Program-made: the position numbers and the translations under genes
Source: Acorus gramineus
Lineage: Eukaryota; Streptophyta; Magnoliopsida; Acorales; Acoraceae
Direction of reading: 5' to 3'
Assembly: GCA_030737835.1 (NCBI GenBank)
Contig: CM060850.1
Span: 26,385,385 to 26,449,384 of the forward strand
DNA length: 64,000 bases
Shown here: one piece after another, positions 358-62,470 of the stretch
Numbering within the stretch: position 1 is the stretch's first letter
How the letters are laid out: each line of letters opens with the position of its first letter
Notes under the pieces: model-generated
Seen by the model: the letters and a program-made list of their open reading frames with translations, nothing else
The model's database searches: none
What the model was told of the DNA's origin: nothing

Positions 358-1026
358 TCAGAACAACATACGGATTTTGGCCGCGTGACCGATGCCAAGT
401 TCCAACATAGTCTGAGGGCCCCGGAGCAACGTCCTGCCAAATCTGAGCCTGAACCCCCTCCCACTCGTCACCGCAAACCACTCCTGCCTCCGCAGGACCG
501 CCATCAGCGTGTACACAGTATCTGATGTCTCCAGCTCTACCTCCCCCACGTCGTTCACCTCGTCATCTTCGATCGTGACCTTGAATGTTACCTCAGGGTC
601 CCGGGCCCTCTCCGCCAAGAGCACTGTATACTCCGACGTGTGCCAATAGTCCCTGATGACGTCGACGTGGTGCATAGGCGCGCCATTCGCCGACAGTATC
701 TGCCGGCCAAGCAATCAATGTGTCCCTTGAGGGTACCCACGGTCTCACGGCCGTTTAAGGAAACTGGAAAGATGTTCCCGTTGTCAATCCGCGTGACATT
801 GATGCAGAACAAGTGGTCTGGATTTCATGTACAAGCTGATGGCTTCGTCAGATGGAAAGTCATTGAGCGTTATCCTGTGGTCGTGTAGGAGGATTTGTTC
901 CCCATATGAAACTTTGCCAATGGCCGCTATCGCATTTTTGAGGTCTCTGACCGTCACCCCGAAATTGACAAGGTTCAAGAGCTGTCGATCCGAGGTGTTC
1001 ATGTCCACAACCTTTAGAGCAACCAT
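358..1026 (-). pseudogene. Broken class A triple ubiquitin-like gene
   Basis: This is a decayed sister of the intact gene at 3417-4136. The start (ATG at 1026-1024) opens a first ubiquitin-like domain with KVVDMNTSD, matching NVVDMNTAD of the sister. The second domain (INVTRIDNGN...) continues in another frame from about 812, and the rest of domain two plus domain three (ILSANGAPM, then ELGIGHAAKIRMLF at the end) lies in a third frame from about 714. At least two frameshifts therefore separate the domains, near 806 and near 710, and the end of domain one is degraded. The third domain is well kept, including the DTVYTLMAVLRR segment that corresponds to DTVFTLMRALRR in the sister. Upstream sequence also resembles that of the sister gene, so it arose by tandem duplication including the promoter. 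No function is expected for the full protein. Confidence 0.78.
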
Positions 1027-1426
1027 TTTGTTTTTTTTTAATTACTATTTTATTTTGTTTTCAGTTCTTGATTTTAGGTTGCAGTGGTCTTTTTAAGATG
1101 TATTATATTAGTCGTGATATTCTCTCATTGTTTCTGCATGAGAATTTGATCATGGAGCTTAAAATTAACATGACAGCATACATGCAAAACTTACTGGATG
1201 CTTACCTCTACTGAATGATTTTGGAGTCTGTGTGACAGTGACAATACAAGTTCCGGCCCTCTCAGTTGTGGGTGGACAACTCCAATTTACAGTACAAGGG
1301 AGGGAGAACAAGCGCCTGCCTATGTTATTATTAAACATTTAGCCCCGTCTGGATAGAAGAATAAAAATGAAATTAGATGCAATATAGGTAAATAAATTCT
1401 AATATATATTTGAATGAAAGAAATAA

Positions 1427-2074
1427 ATGATTATAATTATGTCAAAATGGGTTGCAGAGGTTGCAAAGACTTCTGGGCGGACCATCAACCATTTAGAACT
1501 AATGGCAATCGGGCAATGCATGAAATTGGCATTGGAGCTTGGCATTCAAAGTCTTTGGGTGGAAAGTGAGTCAAAAGTTGCACTATTGTGGGTCATGGTC
1601 AGTGCGAAGGCTGGTAAATTCAATTCAAAATGACTGCATATCTTTCTCCAACATTAAGTTCTCACACATCCATAGGGAGGGCAACTGCCCGGCAGATTTG
1701 TTAGCCAACACGCAAGGTCATCTGGGGGTATCTCGGTTCAACCCATCTCATGTTTAGCCAGAACTGAAAGCTCTCATTGACAGAGATAGAAGTGGAATTC
1801 CATACCTCAGGGAAAAGCTTATGTAGCCTACTTTATATTACCGTTGTTGCATTGTAATTGATCTCCCTTTCTTTTTGTATAATCAGGTGGTTTGAAAAGG
1901 GGTGGGGTGGATACACATATTCAGGTTACTGAGTTTGTTCCCTCGCCACACCTTTCTTTCCCTCCAACCTGGTTAAAATGGCATCTCATTGTAACTACAT
2001 ACACTTTTTATACATTTGCCATATAGTTTTGAGGAATACACTTTTGAACTTACCAACCAAAAAAAAAAAAAAAT
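1427..2074 (+). mobile_element. LINE 3' fragment with RNase H-like domain
   Basis: The plus strand encodes pieces of the RNase H-like domain found at the C-terminus of plant LINE polyproteins: ELMAIGQCMKLALELGI, then LWVESESKVALLWV and, in the next frame, HIHREGNCPADLLAN. The frame shifts once near 1630. A 3' untranslated stretch follows and ends in a run of A at 2060-2073, as expected for a LINE 3' end. It is 5'-truncated and decayed. An isolated host RNase H-like gene is possible but less likely given the poly-A end. Confidence 0.65.
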
Positions 2075-3416
2075 GGGTTGCATCTCACAAATTGAACATT
2101 TTATATATATATCTGATCCCAATATTTAAATTCTCATGATTCACCAACAGGTTTTAGTGGGACCTGGGTAACCCCGCATGTCACCTCAAACCAAATCCAT
2201 ATTGATATGCACAAAGTTTATCTACCATAAGTATTCAACGAAGATTTCATTAATTGGCAGGATGCGTATGCTAGGATGACAATGGAACTGTTCCAACAAG
2301 ACACCCGACGGGTCCGGTTTGAGTTTGGATTTGGGGCGGGTTTATGATAGATAAAATAAAACTCGACAATCTTAAGATGGAAAATGAGTTTGCTTAGCAA
2401 AACCTGTTCCGAAGCCACTCCAGTTGCTATTTATAATAGGATTAAATATTTATTATAATAATTACATAATTTATATTTGTTATTTGGTATTTCAAAAAAA
2501 ATATTAAAAAAATGAATAAATTGAAACGCTAATTGAAATTTGAAATCATATAAACATCCACGAGTTGTCTTTTGGTATTTAAAAAAAAAAACATTATATT
2601 CATCACTTGTTATGGAAATTGAAAGTTTATCTTTCTTATTTTGTAGGATTTATTCTAATAAATATTTATTTTATTTAAAATTTTAATTTAGATTAAATAT
2701 TACATAAATCCGACCTAAATGGAACGGGTCAGGGCGGGTTCGGGTTTTTTACATACTTGTTGGGACGGGGCAGGTTGGGATGGATTTTGTGAATCCCAAT
2801 CTCAGACCCGCTCTCAAAATCTTGTCCCAAACCTGTGACGGGTTTAGTTTTTTTATTCCAAACCCGTCCTAACAAGTATGTAAAAAATCCGAACCCTCCC
2901 CGACCCGTTCCATTAATACAGTAAAAGTATAGTAGAGATAATTAAGATTTTTATAAATATTTTCTAATCATTAATACAAAAAACACATATTAATTAATAC
3001 TTTTTATTGGATGTACGGTAAAGGTAGCAAGACAAGGAAGATTAATTTTTTAAATTATAAAAAATATGATAAATCATTCAAATTAAATGGGTAGACAAAA
3101 CTTTGTGGTGGTAGAGTAAAAAAGGTAAAATTGAGAGTCTCACCTAAAGAGAGCATCTAGCATTTATTTTAAAGGTGCTGTACTTTGGGGGGGGGGGGCG
3201 GGGCGGGTGGGGTGTGGTGGTGGTGGTGGTTGTTTAAAAACCTTTTTACTCTACCACCACATCCGTTCTTCTTGCATGTTATTTTTTTTTGTTCTATTTT
3301 CTCTTCATCACTATTTAAACGTGGTCTATTTAATATAAATGTATATGCTCACATTTTTATCTTAAAAAAAAAAAAAACCAATAATAATCCATCATACCAA
3401 CTCACACCAACAACCT
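2075..3416. other. Gene-free interval with foldback and G run
   Basis: AT-rich intergenic DNA. It holds the foldback listed at 2720-2912 and a G-rich simple repeat near 3187-3235. No credible coding frame is seen; the short frame starting near 3185 is built from the G run. Confidence 0.5.
2720..2912. repeat. Foldback (inverted repeat), MITE-like
   Basis: Two arms of about 50 bp are near-perfect reverse complements. The left arm runs from 2720 (TGGAACGGGTCAGGGCGGGT...) through ACATACTTGTTGGGACGGG, and the right arm is the reverse complement ending at 2912. The loop is about 90 bp. The arms are GC-rich against AT-rich surroundings, which suggests a small foldback transposon. Related GGGTC/GGGCGGGTT sequence also occurs at 2310-2345. 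Confidence 0.6.
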
Positions 3417-6188: not shown

Positions 6189-6650
6189 TCAGTTACACGG
6201 CCTAGAAGGATAGAACAAAAGGATCAAAGCTTGATCACCAATGCCAGCTTGTTCCATGGTATCAGTCTCCAGTAGCCGATTCCCATTGAAAGTGAGATAA
6301 AACTCTCTCCCCCGCACCACTTCCCACCAACGCGCACGCCGCAAGGCAGCGGTCAGCGTGTACATGGTGTCACGCGCTTCCACCTCACTTTCTGCAATTC
6401 GATGTTCCAATACATGTCTCGTATCGACACCATGAAAGTTGTCCCCTCGTCCCGCGGATGCACCTGCACCGCCACCTCAAGATGTGGAGCAAGGGTGTAG
6501 TCCCTGACCGCATCGGAGTCGCACATCTCCATGCCTCACGCCCAGAGCGTCAGGCGCACGGGGGGCACGCCAGACTTGCGGTTGATGATCAGCTTGAGGC
6601 ACGCGACGCAGTGAAGGCTGCCGATGTCGACGGTGAAGCTGAGTAAGGTG
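6189..6650 (-). pseudogene. Broken class A ubiquitin-like gene, domains 2-3 only
   Basis: The second ubiquitin-like domain is readable on the minus strand from about 6645: SFTVDIGSL, then LKLIINRKSGVPPVRLTLWA, closely matching the genes at 41214 (INRETGVPSARQRLWA) and 52615. An in-frame TGA follows LWA, then GMEMCDSDAVRDYT resumes in the same frame. Near 6410 the frame shifts, and the third domain (EVEARDTMYTLTAALRRARWW to ALILLFYPS) is readable to 6189. Domain one is absent: similarity starts abruptly at about 6645. So it is a partial copy with a stop, a frameshift and a missing N-terminus. It shows that the two-domain genes at 41214 and 52615 had a three-domain ancestor, because this close relative keeps domain three. 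Confidence 0.75.
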
Positions 6651-7758: not shown

Positions 7759-8466
7759 CTAAAGAGGGTCCTCGACTACTCTCCCATTGAAAATCTCAAT
7801 CACATCCTTATGCTTCACATTGTGCCAATCGAAAGACTCCTCCTCCATCATCAAGTTTTGCTTATGAATGAAGAAGTACTCACCCCCCTGCACAGAGAAA
7901 TCCATAATGCGTTGCACCCTCTCAACCTCCTTCCTCAGCTCCCTCACCTTATCCATGGGGTTCACCTCCACCACACACCTTTTCCCCCGTGCCGGTTGGA
8001 GCACCACTTTCAACCGAAAGAAGACCCAAACCTCCATTCCATCCGACAACCCGTACTCGGTCAATCTCTTGTTGTCATCCAATTCCAATAGCCCGGCAAA
8101 GACAACCATCCTTCTGTTCGTTGTCGTCGTGGTGCCCTCCAATTCACGCACTTTATCTTTCACCCTGGCAACGGTGTCCTTCGGGTACACCTCCAAGGAA
8201 AACTTGCGTTTCAGGTGAGGTACCTTGACTAGTATTCTCATGGGCCGTCGCTCGCTTACTTGAATCCTTGAACCTTGGAGAACCCCGTAGTACTCTGTGT
8301 CGTGCTCGTTCAACATGAAAATGCCATCGAAGATGAGGGTCTGTTCCGAGATCGGAATGCCAATGTACTTCTGGACCTTCTCCTTCATCTCAAGGACCGT
8401 GGCGAAGAACCACACCTCGATTTCATACTCCTTCCCGTCTCTTATTGTTTCAAATATCACATCCAT
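7759..8466 (-). CDS. Class C divergent triple ubiquitin-like protein (235 aa)
   Basis: Intronless gene. I take the ATG at 8466-8464 (MDVIFETIRDG), because it places the first ubiquitin fold at the N-terminus; the longer open frame upstream is proline- and histidine-rich and comes from a poly-G tract. Three folds are visible: residues about 1-76 (EMKEKVQKYIGIPISEQTLI, clearly like the ubiquitin helix and IPPDQQRLIF block), about 77-150 (VARVKDKVRELEG, then RRMVVFAGLLELDDNKRLTE) and about 151-235. The end (VVEDPL) has no diglycine. It is nearer to ordinary ubiquitin than the class A and B proteins and lacks their VRDY/RGLN signatures, so it may resemble the ancestral form. It is divergent from the class B gene at 9268. 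Function unknown. Confidence 0.8.
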   Translation of the reverse strand: MDVIFETIRDGKEYEIEVWFFATVLEMKEKVQKYIGIPISEQTLIFDGIFMLNEHDTEYYGVLQGSRIQVSERRPMRILVKVPHLKRKFSLEVYPKDTVARVKDKVRELEGTTTTTNRRMVVFAGLLELDDNKRLTEYGLSDGMEVWVFFRLKVVLQPARGKRCVVEVNPMDKVRELRKEVERVQRIMDFSVQGGEYFFIHKQNLMMEEESFDWHNVKHKDVIEIFNGRVVEDPL

Positions 8467-11789: not shown

Positions 11790-12228
11790 GGTAGATGAAA
11801 GGCTTGGATGGAATAGTTTTGGGTGGAGTGTTTTGAGTATTGCAAGGGAATGGATTGGTTGGTTGGTAAGAGTAGAGGAAAAGATTTCAGTGACAAAGAA
11901 GTGTTTATTACAAGTTGAGAGGAGTAGTACAAAGGATTGAGTGGTCTTGCTTATAGCATATATTACAATGAGCCACCTCTCACCTATTTATAGCCCTATG
12001 GTGACTACTCCACTTAGTTGTAGACAATTCTAGATGTTACTAGTACTCCACCATATCCTTGGTAGAGATATTTTAGTACAACATCTAGATATTTCTTACA
12101 TATATGCCAAGTGAAAGTACCTGAACTTTCTCCTTATACAAAGTGGTTTGTAGAATTGAGTAGAAGCTTCATCAAAAAATGTATTATTTTTAACAGTTTC
12201 ATTATTATTTTCTCTCTTGTTTCTAACA
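11790..12228 (-). mobile_element. Possible solo LTR
   Basis: Read on the minus strand the segment starts TGTTAGAAACAAGAGAG at 12228. It contains CTATAAATAG near 11990 and TTGTAATAAAC near 11905, in the order expected of an LTR with promoter and polyadenylation region. I cannot find a target-site duplication or the exact other end. It separates the broken class B gene from the LTR element at 10400-11772. Confidence 0.3.
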
Positions 12229-12239
12229 AATTATAAGAC

Positions 12240-12814
12240 ATGTCAAGATCAGTCCCCTCCGCCGCAATTCCAACGGATCAACTGTCATGATTTTGTGTTG
12301 TACCTTGCGCATTATGAACCTCGGTTTCAACTGACCTTTGCTCGTCTCGTGAAAGCTCGCTCAGATGGATGGCTTGTGTCGGGTCCTCCTCGATCAAATA
12401 ACCATACAAAAGGTCGTCGTCACGCATGGTGGCCCCCATGTAAGTGAGCCGCTGCAGGTGCGGAGGCAGACCGACGCACAAGTGAATGGCCTTCTTCAGG
12501 TCCTTGATCGGTCGGTGGCTCAGTACTTTCACCGGGAAGGCGTCCCCGCGGTACTCGACCATGAGTGTTAGCTTTACGTAGGGCGCCACCTCATAGTGGA
12601 AGTCGATCAACGCTCCATCCCCGACACCGTAGCGCGACGGGTGCGCCACCTCATCGTGCATCAGTTTTCCGTCGTGGACGAGGAGCAGGTCATTCTCGAT
12701 GCGGCAGTGGCGGTGGATCTCCTGCTTGAGTGTACCCACGGTGTGGAATTCACCCTTCAGGGTCTGAACGGGCCGCCTCGGATATGCCATGTTCCTCAAT
12801 TTTAAGAAGATCAT
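12240..12814 (-). pseudogene. Class B ubiquitin-like gene with lost third domain
   Basis: From the ATG at 12814 (MIFLKLRNMAYPRRP) a frame of 178 codons covers ubiquitin-like domains one (LLLVHDGKLMHDEVAHPSRY) and two (LPPHLQRLTYMGATMRDDDL). It then reaches EVHNAQGTTQNHDS and stops at 12278. Beyond the stop, remnants of domain three are readable in other frames (MTVDPLE..., LRRRG), so a frameshift and a deletion have broken it. The remnant ends near 12240, next to an LTR-like segment. The promoter module is intact, so a two-domain protein could still be made, as in the genes at 41214 and 52615. I rate it more likely a decaying copy. Confidence 0.65.
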
Positions 12815-13460: not shown

Positions 13461-14177
13461 TCATTGTGTTAGATATAACAAATCAATTTTTGTCCCCATC
13501 GTCGGGAATCCAATGTCCTCCAATGTGGTGTCCAAAGAAAGACCAAGTCCATTAAAAGCGATAATAAAATTTTGTTCTTGATTCAAGCCCCTCCGCCGCA
13601 TCTCCACGACCACAGTACCCGCAGTGTCCAATGGATCCACCGTCATGATCTCAAACTCCCCGTTGTGCGTGTTACGAACCTCAAGGTTGAATATTCTCCG
13701 CTCGTCTCGTGGAAGCTCTACCAGCTGGACAGCTTCAGTCGGTGTTTCACTAATCAGATAATCGCGCAAGAGGTCATCATCGCGCATGAGAGCCCCCATG
13801 TACGTGAGCCGCTGCCTGTGCGGAGGCAAGCCAACGTAGTAGTTGATCGGTCTCCTTAAATGATTTATCATTGTGTTGCTCTCGAGGGCCATGGAGATGG
13901 TGGTGTCGTGGTACTCGATCTTGAATGTTACGCTCTCGCGCATTGGCAGCTTCACATGGAGGTCAATCGACGCGCCATCTCCAACCCCATAATCAGATGG
14001 ATGCACCGCATCATCGTGCATCAGTTTGCCGTCATGGACGAGGAGTTGTTGGCGGCATAAGATGCCACTGGCGCGGTGGAGCTCTCGCTTGAGTTCATCG
14101 ACCGTGAGGTATTCCCCAGTCAGCGTCTCAACGGGCCAGCCGGTCCATGTCATGTTCGTAACGGTCACAGAGATCAT
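13461..14177 (-). CDS. Class B triple ubiquitin-like protein (238 aa)
   Basis: Intact intronless frame. I choose the ATG at 14177-14175 (MISVTVTNMTWTG), because the TATA-like box is near 14243-14250, which leaves the alternative upstream ATG at 14285 outside the transcript. Domains are about 1-77 (QQLLVHDGKLMHDDAVHPSD), 78-155 (LPPHRQRLTYMGALMRDDDL, then RDYLI) and 156-238 (EIMTVDPLDTAGTV, EMRRRGLNQEQNFIIAFNG). It ends LLYLTQ with no diglycine. The closest relative in the window is the neighbour at 15353-16072, in the same orientation, suggesting local tandem duplication. Partners and role are unknown. Confidence 0.87.
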   Translation of the reverse strand: MISVTVTNMTWTGWPVETLTGEYLTVDELKRELHRASGILCRQQLLVHDGKLMHDDAVHPSDYGVGDGASIDLHVKLPMRESVTFKIEYHDTTISMALESNTMINHLRRPINYYVGLPPHRQRLTYMGALMRDDDLLRDYLISETPTEAVQLVELPRDERRIFNLEVRNTHNGEFEIMTVDPLDTAGTVVVEMRRRGLNQEQNFIIAFNGLGLSLDTTLEDIGFPTMGTKIDLLYLTQ

Positions 14178-15352: not shown

Positions 15353-16072
15353 TCATTGTGGCAACGGATAAATCATCTCAAGACTGCTCCTCCCCTCCCG
15401 GATTCCATTCTCCTCCAAAGTGGTGCGCCCATATAGCACTCGACCACGAAGCGCGATGAAGAAATAGTTCTCCTGATTCAACCCCCTCTGTCGCATCTCC
15501 GCCGCCACAGTATTCATGGTGTCCAACGGATCCACCATCATGATCTCTGACTCCCCGGTGTGCATGTTACGGACCTCCACTTCAAACATTTTCTGCTCGT
15601 CCCGTGGGAGCTCAATCAATTGAACAACTTCAGTCGGGGCTTCACTGATCACATAATCGCACACAAGGTCATCGTCGCGCATGAGAGCCCCCATGTAAGT
15701 GAGCTGCTGTCGATGCAGAGGCAGACCAATGCAGTAGTTGATGGCGTTCTGCAGGTGCTTGATCGGGTAGCAGCTGTCGACGGCCATGGGGAAGGGGTTG
15801 CCGAGGAACTCGACCGTGAGCGTCACGTTCTTGTAGGGGGGGACCTGCACGTGAAGGTCGATCGACGCGCCGTCCACTACGCCATAGAGCGACGGGTGTG
15901 ACACGTCGTCGTGCATGAGTTTTCCGTTGTGGACGAGGAGCTGCAGGTCGGACACGACGCGGCAGACGCGGTGGACCTCCCGCTTGAGTTCGCCCACCGA
16001 GGGGAACTCGCCCGTCAGGGTCTCGACGGGCCAGTTGGTCCATGTCCTGTTCGTCACCGTCACGGTAATCAT
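15353..16072 (-). CDS. Class B triple ubiquitin-like protein (239 aa)
   Basis: Intact intronless frame from the ATG at 16072-16070 (MITVTVTNRTWTN). A strong TATA box (TCTCTTTATATACC on the minus strand, about 16112-16124) sits some 45 bp upstream, which rules out the ATG at 16204. Domains: about 1-77 (LQLLVHNGKLMHDDVSHPSL), 78-155 (LPLHRQQLTYMGALMRDDDL, VCDYVI) and 156-239 (EIMMVDPLDTMNTVAAEM, RGLNQENYFFIALRG). The C-terminus is EMIYPLPQ, with no diglycine. The promoter of this gene is duplicated at 21931-22080 next to the second SKIP30-like copy, but its coding part is not. Confidence 0.88.
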   Translation of the reverse strand: MITVTVTNRTWTNWPVETLTGEFPSVGELKREVHRVCRVVSDLQLLVHNGKLMHDDVSHPSLYGVVDGASIDLHVQVPPYKNVTLTVEFLGNPFPMAVDSCYPIKHLQNAINYCIGLPLHRQQLTYMGALMRDDDLVCDYVISEAPTEVVQLIELPRDEQKMFEVEVRNMHTGESEIMMVDPLDTMNTVAAEMRQRGLNQENYFFIALRGRVLYGRTTLEENGIREGRSSLEMIYPLPQ

Positions 16073-17049: not shown

Positions 17050-18090
17050 CTAAATCGTCAGCACCGCGCACCCAAGGACGTTGCCTCGACACAGAGACAT
17101 GGGCTTCACCTTCTGCCAAGTTGGCGTCACCCTTCGAACATTCAAAACATCAACGTCAGATGACAGCTTGATGAACTGATTAGGGCGCACGATCACCCCA
17201 CCGACCACATAGATGGCATCCTCCAAACCGATCACCCCGAACTCTATCCGGCTCAGCAAGTCCTCAGGCAATGGGAACTCCTTCCTCGCACCCTGCTCTC
17301 CCATGTCCTGCTTAAACACAACTACATTGTTCAACACATAGAGCTCCCCCCGGACCACTGCCATCGGACCTTGGGGCAAACTATAGTCCTTGACGGTCCA
17401 CCGATCCTTTCCGTCCTCTAAAATCTGGACCGATGACAGCCTCTTGTGGAATACATGCATCTTACTGCCTATCACCACCCCGGAACAGGCAGAGTCATCT
17501 GTGTGAGTGAGGTCTGGCAGGGGTTCCCACACATCCTTCTCGGGATCATATATCTCTGACTTCAGTATTGATTCCCGAGGTGTTGTGAAGCCACCTGTGA
17601 CAACTATCTTCCCACCCAAAGCACAGCACGCGAACATGGCTCGCCGAAAAAGCATTGGGGCCCTCCGTGCCCATGACCGGAGAAGTGGGTCATAAGCCCA
17701 GACCTCATTCGTCGCAAAAATCCTGTTACGGTCTCCGGTTGACCAGACAACACCATCACTGCCCCCACCAAGCACAAAGAGCTTTCCATGGAGACTGACA
17801 ACGCCAAAGCGAGCCAGATGTCTTACCTGAGTTGGTAAGACTGGGAGGGTAATCCAATTGTCCATTGAGGGGTCGTAGAGCTGCCACACATTGTCAGGCT
17901 CAAAAGCTAAGACACAAAGAAAGTCCTCAAAAGCATTGGTCTCTTGACGGGCCTTGAGGAAATCTGGACTGCGGAGAGCATCCCGCCACGAGTGGCAGAC
18001 AATCTGGAGTTGAAGGTGGTGGAAAAATGGCACGCGTGCGAGGCACTGGAGGGCAATTGCATCAGGGATTCCATCAATAAGGCCGGACAT
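17050..18090 (-). CDS. SKIP30: F-box/kelch-repeat protein, SKIP30-like, copy 1 (346 aa)
   Basis: Single-exon coding region of 346 codons. The N-terminus MSGLIDGIPDAIALQCLARV and following VCHSWRDALRSPDF form an F-box, which binds SKP1/ASK adaptors in SCF E3 ubiquitin ligases. Kelch repeats follow: KLFVLGGGSD near residue 105, ATNEVWAYDPLLRSW, KIVVTGGFTTPRESILKSEI near 165, YDPEKDVWEPLPDL, and DAIYVVGGVI near 295. The ending RGNVLGCAVLTI matches the Arabidopsis SKIP30 type (RGTILGCTxL(T/R)I), known from memory. It presumably selects substrates for ubiquitination; the target is unknown. An intron in the 5' UTR is inferred (18165-21202). The near-identical neighbour at 22503-23549 is a segmental duplicate. 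Confidence 0.9.
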   Translation of the reverse strand: MSGLIDGIPDAIALQCLARVPFFHHLQLQIVCHSWRDALRSPDFLKARQETNAFEDFLCVLAFEPDNVWQLYDPSMDNWITLPVLPTQVRHLARFGVVSLHGKLFVLGGGSDGVVWSTGDRNRIFATNEVWAYDPLLRSWARRAPMLFRRAMFACCALGGKIVVTGGFTTPRESILKSEIYDPEKDVWEPLPDLTHTDDSACSGVVIGSKMHVFHKRLSSVQILEDGKDRWTVKDYSLPQGPMAVVRGELYVLNNVVVFKQDMGEQGARKEFPLPEDLLSRIEFGVIGLEDAIYVVGGVIVRPNQFIKLSSDVDVLNVRRVTPTWQKVKPMSLCRGNVLGCAVLTI

Positions 18091-21930: not shown

Positions 21931-22080
21931 TACTGTTTGTGATTTTGTGTGGGTGGAATGGGAGGTTTGGTACATAAAGATGTTTGTTGGGGGTGTTAAT
22001 TGTTCTCAAGGCCGCGTTAGCATGATTGGGTTTCTCATAATTCTAGCATAGGCTGAGGAATGTGATATATTTTTTGTGAT
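21931..22080 (-). promoter_or_regulatory. Orphan ubiquitin-like gene promoter
   Basis: The stretch matches 16080-16200, the promoter of the class B gene at 15353: GTTTGTGAT, a TACATAAAGA TATA region, then TTGTTGGGGGTGTT(A)ATTGTT, CTCAAGGCCGCGTTAGCATG and ATTGGGTTTCTCATAA. No ubiquitin-like coding sequence lies to its left. The match breaks off close to where the start codon should be. Confidence 0.7.
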
Positions 22081-22502: not shown

Positions 22503-23549
22503 CTAAATTGTCAGCACCGCGCACCCAAAAACGCTGCCTCGACACCGAGACATGGGCTTCACCTTCCTCCAAGTTGGCATCGCCCTTTGAACATTCAAAA
22601 CATCAACGTCAGATGACAGCTTGAGGAGCAGATTAATGCGTGCTGGTCCGATCACCCCGCCGACCACATAGATGACATCCCCCAAACCGATCATCCCAAA
22701 CCCTATCCGGCTTCCCCAGTCCTCGGGCAATGGGAACTCCCTCCTCACACCCTGCTCCCCTGTGTCCTGCTTAAACACAACTCCATTGCTCAACACATAG
22801 AGCTCTCCCCGGACCACTGCCATCAGACCCTGGGGCCAACCGTAGTCCTTGACGGTCCACCGATCCTTTTCATCGTCTAAAATCTGGACAGTTGACAGCT
22901 TCTTGTGGAATACGTGCATCTTACCACCAATCACCACCCCGGAACAGGGAGAATTGTCTGTGTAATTGAGGTCTGGAAGGGGCTCCCACACATCCCTCTC
23001 GGGATCATATATCTCCGACTTCAGTATTGAATCCCAAGGTCTTGTGAAGCCACCTGTGACAACTATCTTCCCATCCAAAGCACAGCACGCGAATGTGGAT
23101 CGCGGAAAAAGCATTGGGGCCCCCCGTGCCCACAACCGGAGAAGTGGGTCATAAGCCCACACCTCATTCGTCGCAAAAGTCCCATCACGCTCTCCAGTTA
23201 ACGGGTGAACATTATCACTGCCACCACCAAGCACAAAGAGTTTTCCATGGAGAGTGACAACGCCAAAGCGAACCAGATGTCTCACCTGAGTTGGTAAGGC
23301 TGGGAGGGTAATCCAGTCATCCATCAATGGGTCGTAGAGCTGCCACACATTGTCAGGCTCAAAGGCTAAGACACAAAGAAGGTCCTGTGAAGCATTGGTC
23401 TCTTGACGAGCCTTGAGGAAATTTGGACTGCGGAGAGCATCCCGCCACGAGTGGCAGACAAGCTGGAGTTCAAAGTGGCGGAAAAATGGCACGCGTGCGA
23501 GGCATAGGAGGGCAATTGCATCAGGGATTCCATCGATCAGGCCAGACAT
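22503..23549 (-). CDS. SKIP30: F-box/kelch-repeat protein, SKIP30-like, copy 2 (348 aa)
   Basis: Single-exon coding region of 348 codons, closely similar over its whole length to the protein of 17050-18090. The F-box (MSGLIDGIPDAIALLCLARV, LVCHSWRDALRSPNF) and kelch repeats (KLFVLGGGSDNVHPLTGERD, KIVVTGGFTRPWDSILKSEI, DVIYVVGGVIGPARINLLLK) are intact, and it ends RGSVFGCAVLTI. It keeps the GVIGP residues of SKIP30-type proteins that copy 1 has changed to GVIVRP, so copy 2 may be nearer the ancestral form. It probably acts as an SCF substrate receptor; the substrate is unknown. Its 5' UTR intron is inferred at 23624-26088. Confidence 0.9.
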   Translation of the reverse strand: MSGLIDGIPDAIALLCLARVPFFRHFELQLVCHSWRDALRSPNFLKARQETNASQDLLCVLAFEPDNVWQLYDPLMDDWITLPALPTQVRHLVRFGVVTLHGKLFVLGGGSDNVHPLTGERDGTFATNEVWAYDPLLRLWARGAPMLFPRSTFACCALDGKIVVTGGFTRPWDSILKSEIYDPERDVWEPLPDLNYTDNSPCSGVVIGGKMHVFHKKLSTVQILDDEKDRWTVKDYGWPQGLMAVVRGELYVLSNGVVFKQDTGEQGVRREFPLPEDWGSRIGFGMIGLGDVIYVVGGVIGPARINLLLKLSSDVDVLNVQRAMPTWRKVKPMSRCRGSVFGCAVLTI

Positions 23550-26934: not shown

Positions 26935-26990
26935 TTGCTGATCCCATACAAAAACAATGAGAAAACCCAATCACACCGAACAATTAACAC
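26935..26990 (+). promoter_or_regulatory. CCAAT module, broken gene at 27058
   Basis: AATGAGAAAACCCAATCACAC (26956-26976) matches the shared class B module; a TATA-like TATATAG is near 26998. It is still recognisable although the gene is broken. Confidence 0.5.
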
Positions 26991-27057
26991 CCCAATTATA
27001 TAGCCCAATCACATCCCATTCCAACAATTCCAAAACATAACTCTTAGCTAACCCAAT

Positions 27058-34430: not shown

Positions 34431-34440
34431 CCAATTTCGA

Positions 34441-34520
34441 CCGTTCACCCCTGTTTTTGAAGTCTCAATTGGTCTTTCTTTCTTTAATTCTACAAAATTT
34501 CCAAAATCCTCCTCAAACGG
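34441..34520 (+). promoter_or_regulatory. Two AACGG cores upstream of MAP65-3
   Basis: AACGG occurs on the minus strand at 34441-34445 and on the plus strand at 34516-34520 (TCAAACGGTCGAA). AACGG is the core of the M-phase-specific activator element bound by three-repeat MYB factors, which drive cytokinesis genes at G2/M. The match outside the core is imperfect. A (CT)n tract (34526-34552) follows in the probable 5' UTR. Confidence 0.35.
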
Positions 34521-38859: not shown

Positions 38860-39111
38860 GATGTACTATAGTTGGTAGATACCACTTCGGAGTTTGAATT
38901 AGATTGTTTGCTACATTTTCCCCTACACGGTTTTTTTTTCACTCTCTTAAGTCAATTTTAATTGGCTTTTTCTATAGTGTACATATATGGCCTACAAACT
39001 GAGAGAGCGGGTATATATATATATGGCATATGAAATTCATTTCAGAAGTGTTATGTCCAACCATTCTTTTTAAGCTGTGAAGACCATGCTGAAATGATGA
39101 ATGAAGTCTAT

Positions 39112-41213: not shown

Positions 41214-41720
41214 ATGATTCAAAATCTGAAAGTGTTGGACATGAACACAGACAATCAGGAGTGCTTAAAGATCAACAGGGACGTCGCGGTGGTGTCTGAT
41301 GTCAAAACTGTGATCGCGAACGTGGGACTGGCCACATATGAGGATCAGATCCTTTATTTCCAGTGCATCCTACTACATGACGACGAGCAAGAGCTCTCCA
41401 ACTACCGCATCAAGGACGAAGACGTCCTCCACCTCTATAGAAAGACTAAAGCCCCGTTGATCAAAGTCAAGGTCCTGCGCCCACATCCATTCAGATACAG
41501 CGTCACCGTCGATCTCCCTGGCCTTGCACGCGTTGCATCTCTGAGGGTCATTATCAACCGTGAGACAGGTGTGCCCTCAGCACGCCAGAGGCTTTGGGCG
41601 AAAGGCGTGGAGATGCGCGACAATGACGCTGTCAGGGACTATACGCACACGCAGGAGCTTACGGTGGCGATGACAGGCACACGTGCTGATGGACGCTCAG
41701 GGGGTACTAATGTAGCTTAA
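41214..41720 (+). CDS. Class A two-domain ubiquitin-like protein (168 aa)
   Basis: Intronless. I choose the ATG at 41214 (MIQNLKVLDMNTDN), which aligns with the other class A starts and lies about 70 bp after the probable TATA box; the open frame extends upstream to 40890 but is not conserved. Two ubiquitin-like folds: about 1-78 (YEDQILYFQCILLHDDEQEL, LHLYRKTKAP) and 79-150 (VASLRVIINRETGVPSARQR, LWAKGVEMRDNDAVRDYTHT). The frame then ends after a short glycine-rich tail (ADGRSGGTNVA), so the third domain seen in the gene at 3417 is absent. The closest relative is the gene at 52615. It is convergent with the class B gene at 42583. Role unknown. Confidence 0.82.
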   Translation: MIQNLKVLDMNTDNQECLKINRDVAVVSDVKTVIANVGLATYEDQILYFQCILLHDDEQELSNYRIKDEDVLHLYRKTKAPLIKVKVLRPHPFRYSVTVDLPGLARVASLRVIINRETGVPSARQRLWAKGVEMRDNDAVRDYTHTQELTVAMTGTRADGRSGGTNVA

Positions 41721-42582: not shown

Positions 42583-43383
42583 TCATGTTTGAGAAGACCC
42601 AGCTTTCTCGAACGCGGAATTCACCACGACGGTCCCAATCGGACCCTTAATAATCATTTGAATCGAGTCACCATTCTTGATCTTGTAGTCCGCCATGTCA
42701 CTGTTCTCTGGGAGCCGACTTTCTTTAAACATGAGATAAAAATCCTCCCCTCTATTCAACCCTCTGCGCCGCATCTCGGCACTCACAGTACTCACAGTGT
42801 CCCAAGGTTCCACCCCCATGGTCTCACCCTCCTTGGTCACCACATTAACAACATCAATGAAAAGCATGCACTTCCTCTCCCTCGGCGACTCGAACAACTG
42901 CACCGTCGGCGTCGAATCAATCACGTAATCGTACATTCTCTCCTCGTCCTTCATCATGGCTCCCATGTATTCGAGGTTCTGACGGAGCGGGGGCACGCCG
43001 ATGTGCTTGTCGATCTCGCGCTTCAGGTCTCCGACAGACCACTTTGTCTCGACATTTGTCAGGGTGATTTGCCCGTCGCGGTGTTCGACCATGACCGTTA
43101 AGGGCTTGTAGGAGCGATGGAAGGGGTCGGGCGTGTCTTTCTGGTGGAGGTCGATGGACGCGCCGTCTTCGATGCCGTAGTAGTCTAGGTCCGCGTGGGT
43201 CTTGTGGAGGAGATATCCGTCGTGGACGAGGAGCTGGTCGTCGGGGTGGATGCCCCAGACAAGCTGGATCTCCCGCTTGAGATCGTTCATTGTGCTAAGT
43301 TCGCCGTCCATTAGTGTTACTGAAGTTGAGGCGGGGATGGTTTTGCGTATCACTGTCAGGGTGAAGATGTTGGGTTCTTCCAT
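42583..43383 (-). CDS. Class B triple ubiquitin-like protein (266 aa)
   Basis: Intronless, intact, the longest of the array. Start MEEPNIFTLTVIRKTIPAST; the class B start block is extended by a few residues here. Domains: about 1-88 (DDQLLVHDGYLLHKTHADLD, then IEDGASIDLHQKD), 89-170 (VPPLRQNLEYMGAMMKDEER, MYDYVIDSTPTV) and 171-245 (EGETMGVEPWDTVSTVSAEM, RRRGLNRGEDFYLMFKE, IKNGDSIQM). A tail of about 20 residues follows (VVNSAFEKAGSSQT) that other members lack. No diglycine. It is most like the gene at 50636-51394, and the pair with its class A neighbour at 41214 parallels the pair 50636 and 52615, suggesting duplication of a two-gene block followed by rearrangement. Confidence 0.87.
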   Translation of the reverse strand: MEEPNIFTLTVIRKTIPASTSVTLMDGELSTMNDLKREIQLVWGIHPDDQLLVHDGYLLHKTHADLDYYGIEDGASIDLHQKDTPDPFHRSYKPLTVMVEHRDGQITLTNVETKWSVGDLKREIDKHIGVPPLRQNLEYMGAMMKDEERMYDYVIDSTPTVQLFESPRERKCMLFIDVVNVVTKEGETMGVEPWDTVSTVSAEMRRRGLNRGEDFYLMFKESRLPENSDMADYKIKNGDSIQMIIKGPIGTVVVNSAFEKAGSSQT

Positions 43384-48951: not shown

Positions 48952-48982
<31 letters not shown>

Positions 48983-52614: not shown

Positions 52615-53118
52615 ATGGTTGAAAATCTGAAAGTGGTCGACATGGACACCGACAATGAGGACAACAGCTTTGACATCACCGAAGACATTGCGTTGGTATC
52701 CGATATGAAAGCTGTGATCGCCGACACGAGGGGGGTTCCATACGAGGATCAGATCCTTTATTTCGTGTCCATCCTACTACACGGTGACGAGCGAGAGCTC
52801 TCCGACTTCCACATCAAGAGCGACATGTTATTTCCAATACTGCTTCATAGGAAGACCAAAGCCCAGTGGATCAAAGTCGAGGTACTGTGTGTGTGGCCAT
52901 ACCGACGAAGCTTCACGGCCGACGTCTCTGGCCTCGACTGCGTGGCGTCCCTCAAAGCCATCATCAACGGCGTGGTCGGCGTGCCCCCCGCGAACCAGGT
53001 TCTTTGGGCGCACGGTGTGGAGATGCGCGACAGGGATGCGATCAGGGACTATACGTACACGCAGAAGCTTATGGTGTCGATGATGGTTTGCGGCCACTTC
53101 TCGCCTTCCAGGGTTTGA
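52615..53118 (+). CDS. Class A two-domain ubiquitin-like protein (167 aa)
   Basis: Intronless. The ATG at 52615 (MVENLKVVDMDTDN) is chosen by alignment with class A starts; the 12 codons upstream begin with TTG. Two ubiquitin-like domains: about 1-80 (PYEDQILYFVSILLHGDERE) and 81-155 (VASLKAIINGVVGVPPANQV, LWAHGVEMRDRDAIRDYTYT). It stops shortly after QKLMVSMM with a short tail (CGHFSPSRV), so the third domain is missing, as in the gene at 41214. Promoter stretches (AAGCATCCCAT, the TATA region) are shared with that gene. The closest three-domain relatives are at 3417 and the broken copy at 6189. Role unknown. Confidence 0.82.
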   Translation: MVENLKVVDMDTDNEDNSFDITEDIALVSDMKAVIADTRGVPYEDQILYFVSILLHGDERELSDFHIKSDMLFPILLHRKTKAQWIKVEVLCVWPYRRSFTADVSGLDCVASLKAIINGVVGVPPANQVLWAHGVEMRDRDAIRDYTYTQKLMVSMMVCGHFSPSRV

Positions 53119-53758: not shown

Positions 53759-54472
53759 CTAGAGCTTGGCTTGTGGGATACAACACATTTTAAGAACAGT
53801 ACTCTCATGGATTCCGACAGACAACAAAGTCGCACCCATAAAGAGCTCTTCGACAATATGCACGAAACAGAAATCTCGTCCTTGATTCAAGCCTCTCCGT
53901 CGCATCTCCGCAGCCACTGTGTACAGTGTGTCCATCTCGTCCACTGTCATCTCCTCCACATTTCCGCTTTCCATGTTAACAACCCTGATCTCGAATATCG
54001 GGCTCAATAATCTCGGAAGCTCGGTCAGGCGCACAATCGGCCTTATGTCGATCACGTAATCTATTAGTTTGTGGCATTCTTCCATAAGGGCTCCCATGTA
54101 CTCGAGTAGTTGCCGGTGTCGGGGAACGCCAATGTGCATGTCGATCAGGTCCATAAGATGTGTGATCGGCCACTGGGTCTCGGCGACCACCACCAGGCTC
54201 GGCCCGTAGTGGTGCTCGACTGTGATGTTGATGTGTGTGTGATGAGGAAACTTCACCCGAAGGTCGATGAAGTCGAAGTCTTTCACGCCATAGCGTAACA
54301 GGTCAGATTCACTGTGGATCAGTTTGCCATCGTAGACGAAGAGTTGAAGGTCATGCGGGATGCCCCAGATGCGCGCCACCTCCTGCTTGAGTATCTGGAT
54401 GAGGGTCTCCCTGTTCGCGGTTATCTGATACAATCTGTTGTTCACTACGTTCCTCACAGTCAGGGAGATCAT
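53759..54472 (-). CDS. Class B triple ubiquitin-like protein (237 aa)
   Basis: Intronless, intact. Start MISLTVRNVVNNRLYQ at 54472. Domains: about 1-75 (LQLFVYDGKLIHSESDLLRY, VKDFDFIDLRVKFP), 76-153 (VPRHRQLLEYMGALMEECHK, LIDYVIDIRPIV) and 154-237 (NVEEMTVDEMDTLYTVAAEM, RRRGLNQGRDFCFVH, GIHESTVLKMCCIP). No diglycine (ends PQAKL). It is the tandem twin of 56222-56932 and belongs to the right-hand subgroup with 60079 and 61757, marked by an RRRGLN(Q/R)GRD block. The promoter has a shared GGCTTTAGTGTGATTG module at 54593-54608. Confidence 0.87.
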   Translation of the reverse strand: MISLTVRNVVNNRLYQITANRETLIQILKQEVARIWGIPHDLQLFVYDGKLIHSESDLLRYGVKDFDFIDLRVKFPHHTHINITVEHHYGPSLVVVAETQWPITHLMDLIDMHIGVPRHRQLLEYMGALMEECHKLIDYVIDIRPIVRLTELPRLLSPIFEIRVVNMESGNVEEMTVDEMDTLYTVAAEMRRRGLNQGRDFCFVHIVEELFMGATLLSVGIHESTVLKMCCIPQAKL

Positions 54473-56221: not shown

Positions 56222-56932
56222 CTAGAGATTGGATTGTGGGATACAACACATCTTAAGAACAGTTTTCCCATGGATTCCGACTGACAACAAAGTCGCGCTC
56301 ATAAGGAGCTCTTCGACAGTATGCACGAAAAAGAAATCTCGTCCTTGATTCAAGCCTCTCCGTCGCATCTCCGCAGCCACTGTGTACAAGGTGTCCATCA
56401 CATCCACTGTCATCTTCTCGCCCTTTTCGCTTTCCATGTTAACAACCCTGATCTCGAATATCTGCCCCGATCTTGGAAACTCGGCCAGGCGCACAGTCGG
56501 CCTTATGTCGATCACGTAATCCACTAGTCTTTGTCCCACGTCCATGAGGGCTCCCATGTACTCAAGTAGTTGCCGGTGTGGGGGAACGCCAATGTGCATA
56601 TGGATCAGGTCCATAAGATGTGTGATCGGCCACTCGGTCTTGGCGCACACAACCAGGCTCGGCCCGTAGTGGTGCTCGACTGTGATGGCGATCCGCATGT
56701 CGAAAGGAAACTTCACCCGGAAGTCTATGAAGTCATAGTCCTTGATGCCATAGCGAGACAGGTCATTCTGGTTTTTTATCAGTTTTCCATTGTAGACGAA
56801 GAGTTGAAAGTGACACGGAGTGCCCCAGATGCGCGCCACCTCCTGCTTGAGTGTCTGGAAGAGGGTTTCCCTGTGCACGGTTATCTGATGCAATTCGTTG
56901 AACAATACTTCCCTCACAGTCAGGGAGATCAT
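56222..56932 (-). CDS. Class B triple ubiquitin-like protein (236 aa)
   Basis: Intronless, intact, close twin of 53759-54472. Start MISLTVREVLFNELHQ at 56932, with a TATA box (CTCTATATATATACTAG on the minus strand) near 56988-57002. Domains: about 1-75 (LQLFVYNGKLIKNQNDLSRY), 76-153 (VPPHRQLLEYMGALMDVGQR, LVDYVIDIRPTV) and 154-236 (GEKMTVDVMDTLYTVAAEM, RRRGLNQGRDFFFVH, LKMCCIPQSNL). No diglycine. The twin has a changed residue in the conserved PPHRQ (PRHRQ), kept here. Substitutions between the twins keep the frame throughout, so both are probably under selection, though this has not been measured. Confidence 0.87.
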   Translation of the reverse strand: MISLTVREVLFNELHQITVHRETLFQTLKQEVARIWGTPCHFQLFVYNGKLIKNQNDLSRYGIKDYDFIDFRVKFPFDMRIAITVEHHYGPSLVVCAKTEWPITHLMDLIHMHIGVPPHRQLLEYMGALMDVGQRLVDYVIDIRPTVRLAEFPRSGQIFEIRVVNMESEKGEKMTVDVMDTLYTVAAEMRRRGLNQGRDFFFVHTVEELLMSATLLSVGIHGKTVLKMCCIPQSNL

Positions 56933-60078: not shown

Positions 60079-60690
60079 TCATCCTCTAACGTGACGAAGA
60101 TCTCGCCCTTGATTCAGACCTCTTCTTCCCATCTCCGCCGCCACTGTATTCAGGGTGTCCCTCCGATCCACCATCATCGTCTCCCTCCTTCCACTATTGT
60201 TGGCAACGCAGATCTCAAACGGCATGTCCCGTTGACGCTCAATCAGGAACACAGTTGGTCGCGTGCTTATCACGTAATCCAGCATAATGTCGTCGTCATG
60301 CATGGGGGCTTCCATGTACATGAGCCTCTGCCGGTGTGGGGGAACACCAATTCGCTTGTCGATCATGACTTTAAGATATGCAATCGACCACTGGGTCTCG
60401 GCGTCCACCACCTCGACGAGTCCATTCTTGTGCTGGACCGTGACAGTGAGAAGCTTGTAGTAAGGGAACTTCACATAGAGGTCGATCGAGTGGGAGTCCC
60501 CCACCCTGTAGTAAGACAGGTCATCCAAGTAATGCATAAGTTGGCCGTTGAAGACGAGGAGCTGAAGGTGTTTCGGGATGCCACAGAAGTTCTCGACCTC
60601 CTGCATGAGTGTCGTGACGCCGAATTCACTGGTCAATGTTACCGAGTAACAGCTGTTTTTGAATACGTGCATCACAGTCAGGGTCATCAT
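60079..60690 (-). CDS. Class B ubiquitin-like protein, third domain cut short (203 aa)
   Basis: Intronless frame. I choose the ATG at 60690 (MMTLTVMHVFKNSC); a TATA box (CTCTATATATTAG on the minus strand) near 60737-60749 excludes the ATG at 60768. Domains one (LQLLVFNGQLMHYLDDLSYY) and two (VPPHRQRLMYMEAPMHDDDI, MLDYVISTRPTV) are complete. Domain three starts normally (RRETMMVDRRDTLNTVAAEM, GRRGLNQGRD) but then reads LRHVRG and stops, about 30 residues before the usual end. A direct repeat TCCTCTAACGTG stands at the break (about 60048 and 60083), suggesting a small deletion or rearrangement. It may be a young pseudogene or a shortened but working protein. EAPMHD replaces the usual GA(L/V)M.D. 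Confidence 0.7.
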   Translation of the reverse strand: MMTLTVMHVFKNSCYSVTLTSEFGVTTLMQEVENFCGIPKHLQLLVFNGQLMHYLDDLSYYRVGDSHSIDLYVKFPYYKLLTVTVQHKNGLVEVVDAETQWSIAYLKVMIDKRIGVPPHRQRLMYMEAPMHDDDIMLDYVISTRPTVFLIERQRDMPFEICVANNSGRRETMMVDRRDTLNTVAAEMGRRGLNQGRDLRHVRG

Positions 60691-61169: not shown

Positions 61170-61690
61170 TGTTTCGAAGTTATGGATTGAATCAGATTCC
61201 ACAACTGCACTGGCATGAGTTCATGGCAAAGGCAACGTCCCCTGGACAGCACTCAGGAAATTTCACCGGGACTATGAGAAGCTGCAATGTTGGAAAGCAA
61301 CACACATCTATAGAGAAGGAAACACTCATGTGGACTTGGCTGTGGCTTATCAGTCATTAAGAGTAGAGATTAAATTGCGTCCTAAGCAGCTATGGGAGGA
61401 AATCAGAGCAGCCATCGAACAGGACAGGCTAATGGAAGGCTATCAATGTAAAATCTAGAATATGGACTAAGCTGGAACTGGATTTGTTTTTGGCAGCAGA
61501 CGGAACAGAGGAACCAGAGGAGATTGTGAAAGGGAAAGTTTTTTTTTTTATGTGCATAAGCATTAAGGGATGGATGCCTACCACATCTGTTTGGTAGCTT
61601 CCATTTGGCCAATCTCTCGCTACGTTTAAATTTCTTTACTATAGCAATACAAAACTTTTAATTACCAATAGCAAAAAAACATAACTTCAT
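61170..61690 (+). mobile_element. LINE 3' fragment with RNase H-like domain
   Basis: The plus strand encodes KLWIESDSTTALA, a stop, then VHGKGNVPWTALRKFHRDYE, KATHIYREGNTHVDLAVAYQ and LWEEIRAAIEQDRLMEGYQ: the RNase H-like C-terminus of a plant LINE with one in-frame stop. The 3' region ends in ATTACCAATAGCAAAAAAAC near 61680. It is the best preserved of the LINE ends in the window. Confidence 0.72.
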
Positions 61691-61756
61691 ACTTGAGAAA
61701 GGGAACTGGCATATGCTTTTAAATTTAACCTACACATAATACTATCCACTTCATTA

Positions 61757-62470
61757 TTAGAACCTCGATCGTCGTATATAATAATGCATTTCAACTATAG
61801 CTTCTCCATGGATTCCGATGTGTCCTAAAACACTGTTCATGGAGAGCCCACGTCCGAAGTGCATGAAATAAAAATCTCGTCCTCGATTCAAGCCTCTTCG
61901 TCGCATCTCCGCAGCCACTGTACAAAGTGTGTCCATCTCATCCACCTCCATCATCTCATAATATCCGTCGCCCATGTTAACAACCCTGATATTGAACAAC
62001 ATCCCTTCTCTCTGAAGCTCGATAAGGGAGATGATTGGACTCGAGGTGATCACATAATCCAGTAAGCGGTCATGGTCTTCCATGACGGCTCCCATGTACT
62101 CAAGCCGCTGCCGATGTGGTGGAACACCGATGTTGTTGTCGATCAGGAATTTAAGATCTCCGATAAACACTTCGGCCTTGGTGTCTAAAAGTCTGAGCCC
62201 ATAATAGCACTCGACTGCAAGCACGATGAGCCTGTAAGGGAGCTTCACATGGAGCTCGATCAAGTCTGAGTACTTCACCCCATAGTGAGACAGGTCCACG
62301 AATTTGTCATGCATCAGTTTGCCTTCGAAGACGAGGATCTGATGCTCCGGCAGGATGTCCCAGATGAGCTGGAGCTCCAGCATGAGTGTCCAAACGGTGT
62401 GTTCCCTTGACCTGATGATTAACTGGTGCGATATCTTCTGCAACATGTGCCTCACAGTTAGGGAGAACAT
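61757..62470 (-). CDS. Class B triple ubiquitin-like protein (237 aa)
   Basis: Intronless, intact. Start MFSLTVRHMLQKIS at 62470, with a TATA box (CTATATATTAG on the minus strand) near 62532-62542. Domains: about 1-78 (HQILVFEGKLMHDKFVDLSH), 79-155 (VPPHRQRLEYMGAVMEDHDR, LLDYVITSSPII) and 156-237 (YYEMMEVDEMDTLCTVAAEM, RRRGLNRGRDFYFMH, GIHGEAIVEMHYYI). No diglycine (ends RRSRF). It belongs to the right-hand subgroup with 53759, 56222 and 60079 and is the last member of the array in this window; more may lie beyond 64000. Confidence 0.87.
   Translation of the reverse strand: MFSLTVRHMLQKISHQLIIRSREHTVWTLMLELQLIWDILPEHQILVFEGKLMHDKFVDLSHYGVKYSDLIELHVKLPYRLIVLAVECYYGLRLLDTKAEVFIGDLKFLIDNNIGVPPHRQRLEYMGAVMEDHDRLLDYVITSSPIISLIELQREGMLFNIRVVNMGDGYYEMMEVDEMDTLCTVAAEMRRRGLNRGRDFYFMHFGRGLSMNSVLGHIGIHGEAIVEMHYYIRRSRF

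What the first reader, a model, noticed from the sequence alone, without database searches (positions are those of the whole stretch)
358..62470. Birth-and-death tandem array of 17 poly-ubiquitin-like loci
Seventeen related loci, in three classes and both orientations, cover nearly the whole window: 12 apparently whole, one shortened and four broken in different ways (frameshifts, stop, deletion, transposon next to the break). Such turnover over 62 kb is typical of fast-evolving families in conflict or reproduction, and is unusual for ubiquitin-fold genes. From memory, Arabidopsis also has uncharacterised ubiquitin-like genes clustered near UBQ10 on chromosome 4, but I know of no described function.
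Basis: partly seen in the sequence, partly recalled or inferred. Interest (0 to 1): 0.85.

Follow-up and report, generated by a model that had tools for sequence, protein, structure and literature searches.

The report
Plant array of triple ubiquitin-like genes
A stretch of a plant chromosome carries about twenty related genes and gene remnants whose whole copies encode three ubiquitin-shaped beads in a row without the usual cutting and attachment signals; the array is real and mostly old, and its whole copies look preserved by selection, but it resembles gene clusters already listed in Arabidopsis rather than something wholly new.

Summary
The array is real. The window (plant genome, G000:C4:26385385-26449384) holds 16 loci plus two short fragments related to ubiquitin: 10 whole three-domain genes, two open two-domain genes, one truncated, three broken. 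It continues about 4 kb left and 10 kb right. Pfam matches, AlphaFold models of two members (pLDDT 90 and 92) and Foldseek hits to linear tri/tetra-ubiquitin show three ubiquitin folds in line. None of 24 full-length family proteins has Gly-Gly at a domain junction or end, so they are not polyubiquitin precursors but fixed tri-UBL proteins. "Birth and death" holds partly: the class A subclades predate a block duplication dated by a linked MAP65 gene (C4/C10 dS 0.54-0.64); only two pairs look young. "Conflict" is not shown: whole-gene dN/dS is 0.30-0.81 in 19 pairs, and between two inferred haplotypes nine whole genes carry 1 nonsynonymous and 6 synonymous differences, nonsynonymous changes being far rarer than changes in the array's broken copies (p about 1e-6). 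A modest site-model signal of diversification exists in class A. Most likely function: non-covalent adaptor or scaffold UBL proteins (inferred). Related to known plant UBL clusters (Arabidopsis At4g05230-05310); I found no functional study in the listings I saw.

The parts
355..1100 (-). u01, broken class B gene: domains 1 and 3 recognisable, stops and frame change in domain 2; split by an LTR retrotransposon on contig C121
3417..4136 (-). u02, whole class B gene, 239 aa, three UBL domains (AlphaFold pLDDT 92.5)
6189..6640 (-). u03, broken class B gene (domains 2 and 3 in different frames, stop)
7759..8466 (-). u04, class C gene, 235 aa, one open frame; nearest relative is a gene with a predicted intron beside a polyubiquitin gene on C1
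9268..9984 (+). u05, whole class A (subclade A1) gene
12200..12814 (-). u06, truncated A1-like gene: domains 1-2 open, domain 3 broken
13461..14177 (-). u07, whole A1 gene
15353..16072 (-). u08, whole A1 gene
17050..18090 (-). F-box/kelch gene 1 (neighbour, not a family member)
21932..22039 (-). fragment 1, A1-like upstream/leader remnant
22503..23549 (-). F-box/kelch gene 2, twin of gene 1
26950..27246 (+). fragment 2, A1-like domain 1 remnant
34317..39101 (+). MAP65 gene shared with the C10 block; used to date the block duplication
41214..41720 (+). u09, class B-like open frame with two UBL domains, no domain 3
42583..43383 (-). u10, whole class A (subclade A2) gene, 266 aa
50636..51394 (-). 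u11, whole A2 gene, 252 aa (AlphaFold pLDDT 90.1)
52615..53118 (+). u12, class B-like open frame with two UBL domains, no domain 3
53759..54472 (-). u13, whole class A (subclade A3) gene
56222..56932 (-). u14, whole A3 gene, young twin of u13
60079..60690 (-). u15, A3-like gene with a frame change in domain 3; twin of u17 outside the window
61757..62470 (-). u16, whole A3 gene

Best explanation
This is an old tandem array of single-open-frame genes for stand-alone tri-UBL proteins: three ubiquitin folds in one chain, with no Gly-Gly at the joints or at the end. Shown: the architecture, the absence of the usual processing and conjugation signal, the family tree, and constraint on the whole copies that could be compared. 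Inferred: each protein works as a fixed, deubiquitinase-resistant, ubiquitin-chain-shaped module that binds partners non-covalently, as other non-conjugated UBL-domain proteins do. Binding would use surfaces other than the canonical Ile44 patch: candidates are the conserved face of domain 2 (consensus VPPHRQ-x-L-x-YMGA) and the arginine-rich end of the first helix of domain 3 (EMRRRGLN, exact in 7 of 10 class A proteins). Copies arose by occasional local duplication, diverged under relaxed or mildly diversifying selection, and were then held by purifying selection or broken.
For: Pfam ubiquitin hits; AlphaFold of u11 and u02, three ubiquitin folds each; for each model the six best Foldseek hits are chains of linear tetra- or tri-ubiquitin over 234-239 alignment columns, E 3e-19 to 7e-16. 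No protein of 24 ends in GG, and GG pairs present in 8 of 24 lie inside domains, not at the joints; position 44 of domain 2 is E/T/M/A in class A. Constraint: between haplotypes nine whole genes (8 of the 10 in the window plus uA) show 1 nonsynonymous and 6 synonymous differences (binomial p=0.0007), and all nine stay open; nonsynonymous 1 in 5,074 sites versus 18 in 3,490 bases of the other loci (p=1.1e-6) or 14 in 2,281 without u09 and u12 (p=8e-7), while the synonymous rate does not differ from those (p=0.82 and 0.50). GC3 is 0.61-0.83 in the 24 coding copies against 38% GC in the window. Age: C10 block with MAP65, t1 and t2.
Against: No expression or binding data exist here; the adaptor role is inference by fold and by elimination. 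Whole-chain TM-scores of the six best hits are low (0.28-0.41 by query), so the relative placing of the beads is not shown to match a ubiquitin chain. Young twins have high omega (u13/u14 0.67, a05/a06 0.81), so constraint on each copy may be weak. The haplotype test rests on seven differences in one individual; the broken-copy yardstick is uneven (fragment 2 has 6 of 283, u01 0 of 663); C121 as an allele is inferred from collinear pieces mostly 95-99% identical. The conserved surfaces were read from alignments, not mapped on the model.
Confidence: 0.55

Rival explanations
1. Conflict-driven repertoire: the copies diversify against pathogen effectors or in reproduction, and turnover is adaptive.
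For: Class A site models on trimmed columns: M1a/M2a p=0.003; null simulations as large 0 of 31 and 1 of 41. M8a/M8 p=0.002-0.003 on trimmed columns for class A and for the second array, without a null simulation. MK-like contrast: u13/u14 70 N to 28 S against 1 N to 6 S between haplotypes, p=0.004; u07/u08 p=0.04. Several broken copies.
Against: Whole-gene omega is below 1 in 19 of 19 UBL pairs. M1a/M2a for the second array is not significant on trimmed columns (p=0.09; null as large 4 of 31 and 1 of 41). The linked kelch twins show a similar MK-like shift (74:40 against 4:9, p=0.03), so relaxation after duplication explains it as well. The subclades are old. No expression data.
Confidence: 0.15
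2. Decaying polyubiquitin genes or neutral debris of the ubiquitin family.
For: Several copies broken; only 10-29% identity to ubiquitin per domain.
Against: 10 whole frames of 235-266 aa in the window, high GC3, and nonsynonymous differences between haplotypes about 25 times rarer than differences in the other loci.
Confidence: 0.07
3. Precursors of new ubiquitin-like modifiers, cut and conjugated like polyubiquitin.
For: Head-to-tail ubiquitin folds, as in polyubiquitin.
Against: 0 of 24 proteins has Gly-Gly at a joint or at the end.
Confidence: 0.03
4. Proteasome shuttle or proteasome-binding UBL proteins of RAD23/DSK2 type.
For: UBL folds without Gly-Gly, as in shuttle factors (recalled); domain 1 keeps V, L, I or F at position 44.
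Against: No UBA was found by Pfam. The Ile44-type patch is not kept: positions 8, 68 and 70 vary, and position 44 of domain 2 is E or T in 7 of 10 class A proteins.
Confidence: 0.15

Closest known systems
Arabidopsis 'ubiquitin-like superfamily' genes At4g05230-At4g05310 (structure 2kk8 = AT4g05270)
   Same: Uncharacterised UBL genes with neighbouring locus numbers, 129-415 aa (table in PMC9400066, passages seen); u04 matches the solved AT4g05270 domain, E=9.6e-7.
   Different: No Arabidopsis sequences could be aligned in full; copy numbers, orthology and domain counts are not tested. AT4g05270 is not u04's best match in the PDB: ubiquitin chains and some ubiquitin variants score higher.
Polyubiquitin / linear (Met1) ubiquitin chains
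   Same: Head-to-tail ubiquitin folds; the best fold and profile matches are linear ubiquitin chains.
   Different: No Gly-Gly joints, 10-29% identity to ubiquitin per domain, domains mutually divergent.
Animal tandem-UBL proteins ISG15, FAT10, OASL C-terminal UBLs
   Same: Two UBL folds in one chain; ISG15 and OASL appear among fold hits, ISG15 and FAT10 among profile hits.
   Different: Two beads rather than three; ISG15 and FAT10 are conjugated through Gly-Gly (recalled); no orthology implied.
Plant ubiquitin/UBL ('ubiquiton') family studied by Hua et al. 2018 in 50 plant genomes
   Same: Same superfamily and the same question of duplication patterns (described in PMC6605638 and PMC6651606, passages). 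A 2026 study of Pinus massoniana reports 30 ubiquitin/UBL genes with tandem duplicates (PMC13074694, passages).
   Different: Hua et al. 2018 is not held, so whether this family is in its groups is untested.

Membership tests
Ubiquitin-fold (UBL) proteins | Beta-grasp ubiquitin fold, Pfam PF00240 | tested here: met
   (14 of 16 over cut-off); models of two members
Polyubiquitin precursors | Gly-Gly at every unit junction and end | tested here: not met
   0 of 24 proteins
Polyubiquitin precursors | Near-identical ubiquitin units | tested here: not met
   10-29% identity to ubiquitin per domain
Proteasome shuttle UBL-UBA proteins | UBA domain beside the UBL | tested here: not met
   no UBA in Pfam scans of 16 u-proteins at E<=0.1
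Proteasome shuttle UBL-UBA proteins | Ile44-type hydrophobic patch | tested here: not met
   by alignment only
Birth-and-death gene family | Duplicated, retained and broken copies side by side | tested here: met
Birth-and-death gene family | Lineage-specific expansion relative to other species | not testable with these tools
   no other plant genome is held; the internal C10 block suggests that the subclades are older than the block duplication
Positively selected conflict family | dN/dS above 1 or well-supported sites above 1 | tested here: inconclusive
   whole-gene pairs below 1; class A sites p=0.003, second array p=0.09 on trimmed columns
Arabidopsis At4g05230-05310 type cluster | Orthology or synteny | tested here: inconclusive
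   u04 to AT4g05270 domain E=9.6e-7; C1 relative beside polyubiquitin; the Arabidopsis position of UBQ10 is recalled

The most novel reading that the evidence does not exclude
A plant has evolved a diversified set of uncleavable, chain-shaped triple ubiquitin mimics that act as decoys or scaffolds for readers, erasers or pathogen proteins that recognise linear ubiquitin chains: a plant parallel to the animal tandem-UBL proteins ISG15, FAT10 and OASL.
Probability: 0.1. Interest if true: 0.8.

Novelty: new member of a known kind. Interest (0 to 1): 0.42.

Why it matters
Divergent UBL genes in clusters are listed in more than one plant, yet in the listings and passages I saw no study says what such proteins do. 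This array offers a clean system: whole and broken copies side by side, two haplotypes for most of it, a duplicated block dated by a MAP65 gene, and conserved surfaces that differ from ubiquitin's. It makes the question 'what do non-conjugable tri-UBL proteins bind?' directly testable.

Tried and rejected
Polyubiquitin precursor: rejected for lack of Gly-Gly. Neutral debris: rejected for the nine whole copies compared between haplotypes. Absence of u14-u18 on C121 as a true haplotype deletion: not claimed. C121:74001-83280 is largely repeated sequence found elsewhere in the genome, and no allelic copy of window 55500-64000 was seen in the held assembly (a search that scores only its best candidates); the contig may hold an insertion or a misjoin. 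Recent burst: rejected for most splits by dS. Literature: one search listed 2 irrelevant papers; one search listed 8 papers naming Arabidopsis cluster genes, of which I saw passages in two; one search listed 13, of which I saw passages in four; one search listed 15 of 138, one search listed 12 of 3,027 and one search listed 2, seen as listings only. No functional study showed up in these. Hua et al. 2018 is not held. Organism: not identified; a plastid-like rbcL fragment matches 1wdd best (1wdd is rice as I recall), with margins too small to decide.

Limits of the statistics: pairwise dN/dS is NG86 and the dS values near or above 1 are saturated; M1a/M2a/M8a/M8 are my own implementation with branch-length proportions fixed from IQ-TREE and a short optimiser (searches give 2dlnL 20.4 and 23.2 for the same untrimmed class A data). 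In one search the null data sets got one optimiser start and the real data two, which favours the real data; I repeated it with equal starts (class A 1 of 41, second array 1 of 41 as large). Recombination between paralogues was not modelled. Dropped rows: the haplotype counts used only reverse-strand BLAST pieces of at least 400 bases and 94.5% identity; the 'pseudogene' set also holds u09 and u12, which are open, and one search leaves them out; the codon trees left out u04, class B, partial genes and columns with more than one gap; the second MAP65 dS used only exons of at least 75% identity (407 codons, 0.64, against 0.54 for all 903). The whole-genome family search scored 150 of 219 candidates, so its counts are lower bounds.
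Full report
What is there. The window is G000:C4:26385385-26449384 in a plant assembly of 398.6 Mb in 137 contigs. Searching 100 kb around it with ten whole proteins found 18 related places inside the window and four more outside (uA, uB, u17, u18), so the array runs from about window -3978 to 74467. Inside are 10 whole three-domain genes, two open two-domain genes (u09, u12), one truncated gene (u06), three broken genes (u01, u03, u15) and two fragments. Pfam ubiquitin is matched by 15 of the 16 u-proteins scanned at E<=0.1, 14 of them over the curated cut-off.

Fold. AlphaFold models of u11 (class A; pLDDT 90.1, pTM 0.83) and u02 (class B; pLDDT 92.5, pTM 0.85) each show three ubiquitin folds in a row. 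For both, the six best Foldseek hits are linear tetra- and tri-ubiquitin, aligned over 234-239 columns with E between 3e-19 and 7e-16; linear di-ubiquitin, ISG15 and OASL tandem domains follow. The whole-chain TM-scores are low (0.28-0.41 by query for those six), so the beads match one by one while their mutual placing does not. Class C and the second array were not modelled.

Not polyubiquitin. Of 24 full-length proteins (12 of this array, 10 of the second array, 2 from C10) none ends in Gly-Gly, and the Gly-Gly pairs present in 8 of them lie inside domains. Identity to ubiquitin is 10-29% per domain. In class A, position 44 is V in domain 1 but E, M, T or A in domain 2; positions 8, 68 and 70 vary. 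What is conserved instead in class A is the VPPHRQ-x-L-x-YMGA face of domain 2 and the helix EMRRRGLN of domain 3 (exact in 7 of 10); two of three class B proteins have LRRR there.

Family tree and age. The protein tree (24 proteins) separates class B (u02, uA and t1 on C10), class A with subclades A1 (u05, u07, u08), A2 (u10, u11 and t2 on C10) and A3 (u13, u14, u16, u17), u04 on a long branch, and the second array at C4:8.29-8.31 Mb (12 loci, 10 with whole frames, all on one strand). The grouping of t2 with u10 and u11 has support 80 in the protein tree and 100 in the class A codon tree; the deeper order of A1, A2 and A3 is weak in the protein tree (41). On C10 a MAP65 gene lies between t1 and t2, as a MAP65 gene lies inside this array. 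The MAP65 pair has dS 0.64 over 407 well-aligned codons (0.54 over all 903), and A2 to t2 has 0.66; A1-A2, A1-A3 and A2-A3 average 1.04-1.17, A1-t2 0.85 and A3-t2 1.03. So the three subclades probably existed before the block was duplicated. On C10 only t1, t2 and one A1-like fragment were found, so A3 seems lost there. u10/u11 (0.65) is about as old as the block; A1 members differ by 0.72-0.85. Young events are u13/u14 (dS 0.21) and u15/u17 (82.7% DNA identity over 928 bases).

u04. Its nearest relative in the genome is on C1:14249822-14251295, 60-61% identical, in two pieces separated by an AT-rich stretch with stops, which I read as an intron near the domain 1/2 junction. That gene lies about 1.5 kb from a polyubiquitin gene. 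u04 is one open frame, so it may be a retrocopy (inference). u04 also matches the solved AT4g05270 domain (E 9.6e-7, not its best PDB match).

Selection. NG86 omega is 0.67 for u13/u14, 0.30 for u07/u08 and 0.30-0.81 over 19 UBL pairs; of 15 one-third-gene values one exceeds 1 (a05/a06 middle third, 1.47). Between C4 and the collinear contig C121, nine whole genes (eight of the ten in the window plus uA; for u14 and u16 no second copy was seen) differ by 7 of 6,579 bases, against 18 of 3,490 in the other array loci (14 of 2,281 without the open u09 and u12), 36 of 2,693 in the 300 bases upstream, 25 of 2,271 in the 300 downstream and 713 of 44,506 elsewhere. Of the 7, 6 are synonymous and 1 is not. 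The synonymous rate does not differ from that of the other loci (p=0.82; 0.50 without u09 and u12), the nonsynonymous rate is far below it (p=1.1e-6; 8e-7). The broken copies vary: fragment 2 has 6 of 283, u03 5 of 452, u01 0 of 663. All nine frames are open on both copies. These whole copies therefore look constrained today. Against this reading, the young twins have high omega, and a McDonald-Kreitman-like contrast is significant for u13/u14 (p=0.004) and u07/u08 (p=0.04), though the linked kelch twins show the same trend (p=0.03). Site models on trimmed columns give class A M1a/M2a p=0.003 (null as large 0 of 31 with unequal and 1 of 41 with equal optimiser starts) and the second array p=0.09 (4 of 31 and 1 of 41); untrimmed data give smaller p.

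Mechanism. The evidence supports fixed tri-UBL proteins without the usual conjugation signal, under constraint. The step from there to a non-covalent adaptor is inference from the fold, from the absence of any Pfam domain of another kind over its cut-off in the 16 u-proteins (all such matches are ubiquitin-like models), and from conserved surfaces that are not those of ubiquitin. I hold the adaptor reading at moderate confidence and the decoy reading at about one in ten.

Known or new. Divergent UBL genes with neighbouring locus numbers are listed for Arabidopsis (table in PMC9400066, passages seen), and a 50-genome study of the plant ubiquitin and UBL family exists (Hua et al. 2018, cited in PMC6605638 and PMC6651606, passages; the paper itself not held). 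I found no functional study of such genes in the listings, most of which I saw as titles and abstract openings only. I therefore file this as a new member of a known kind.

Noticed in passing
window 16870-21246 and 22337-26115: A tandem segment with an F-box/kelch gene duplicated within the array (pieces 86-92% identical; kelch dS 0.18, omega 0.54); a third copy at C7:17279007, 73% identical.
   Followed up: partly
window 876-898; C121 contig about 135015-139958: On C121 the already broken u01 is split by a 4.9 kb copia-type LTR retrotransposon with end repeats of about 394 bases, 98.7% identical.
   Followed up: partly
window 46926-49247: A block with GC-rich tandem repeats has only about 500 bases in its place on C121, so it is probably a haplotype-specific insertion.
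   Followed up: no
window 10551-10851: An open-frame region with 16 mismatches in 301 bases (5.3%) between C4 and C121, far above the surroundings; unexplained.
   Followed up: no
C4:8289900-8313900 (L014-L016): A second tandem array of 12 tri-UBL loci, all on one strand, 10 whole.
   Followed up: yes
C9:10222400, C11:16243600, C3:12254500 (L029-L031): Separate open frames of 292-405 aa with several divergent UBL units, the best of them scoring higher against the ubiquitin model than this family.
   Followed up: no
C6:15749600 (L033) and C9:15058900 (L034): A tri-UBL-like open frame and a relative with one stop; the protein searches listed no further members beside them.
   Followed up: no
window 41214-41720 and 52615-53118: u09 and u12 lose similarity to class B at about the same point, the end of domain 2, and may be a two-domain form rather than independent breakages.
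   Followed up: partly
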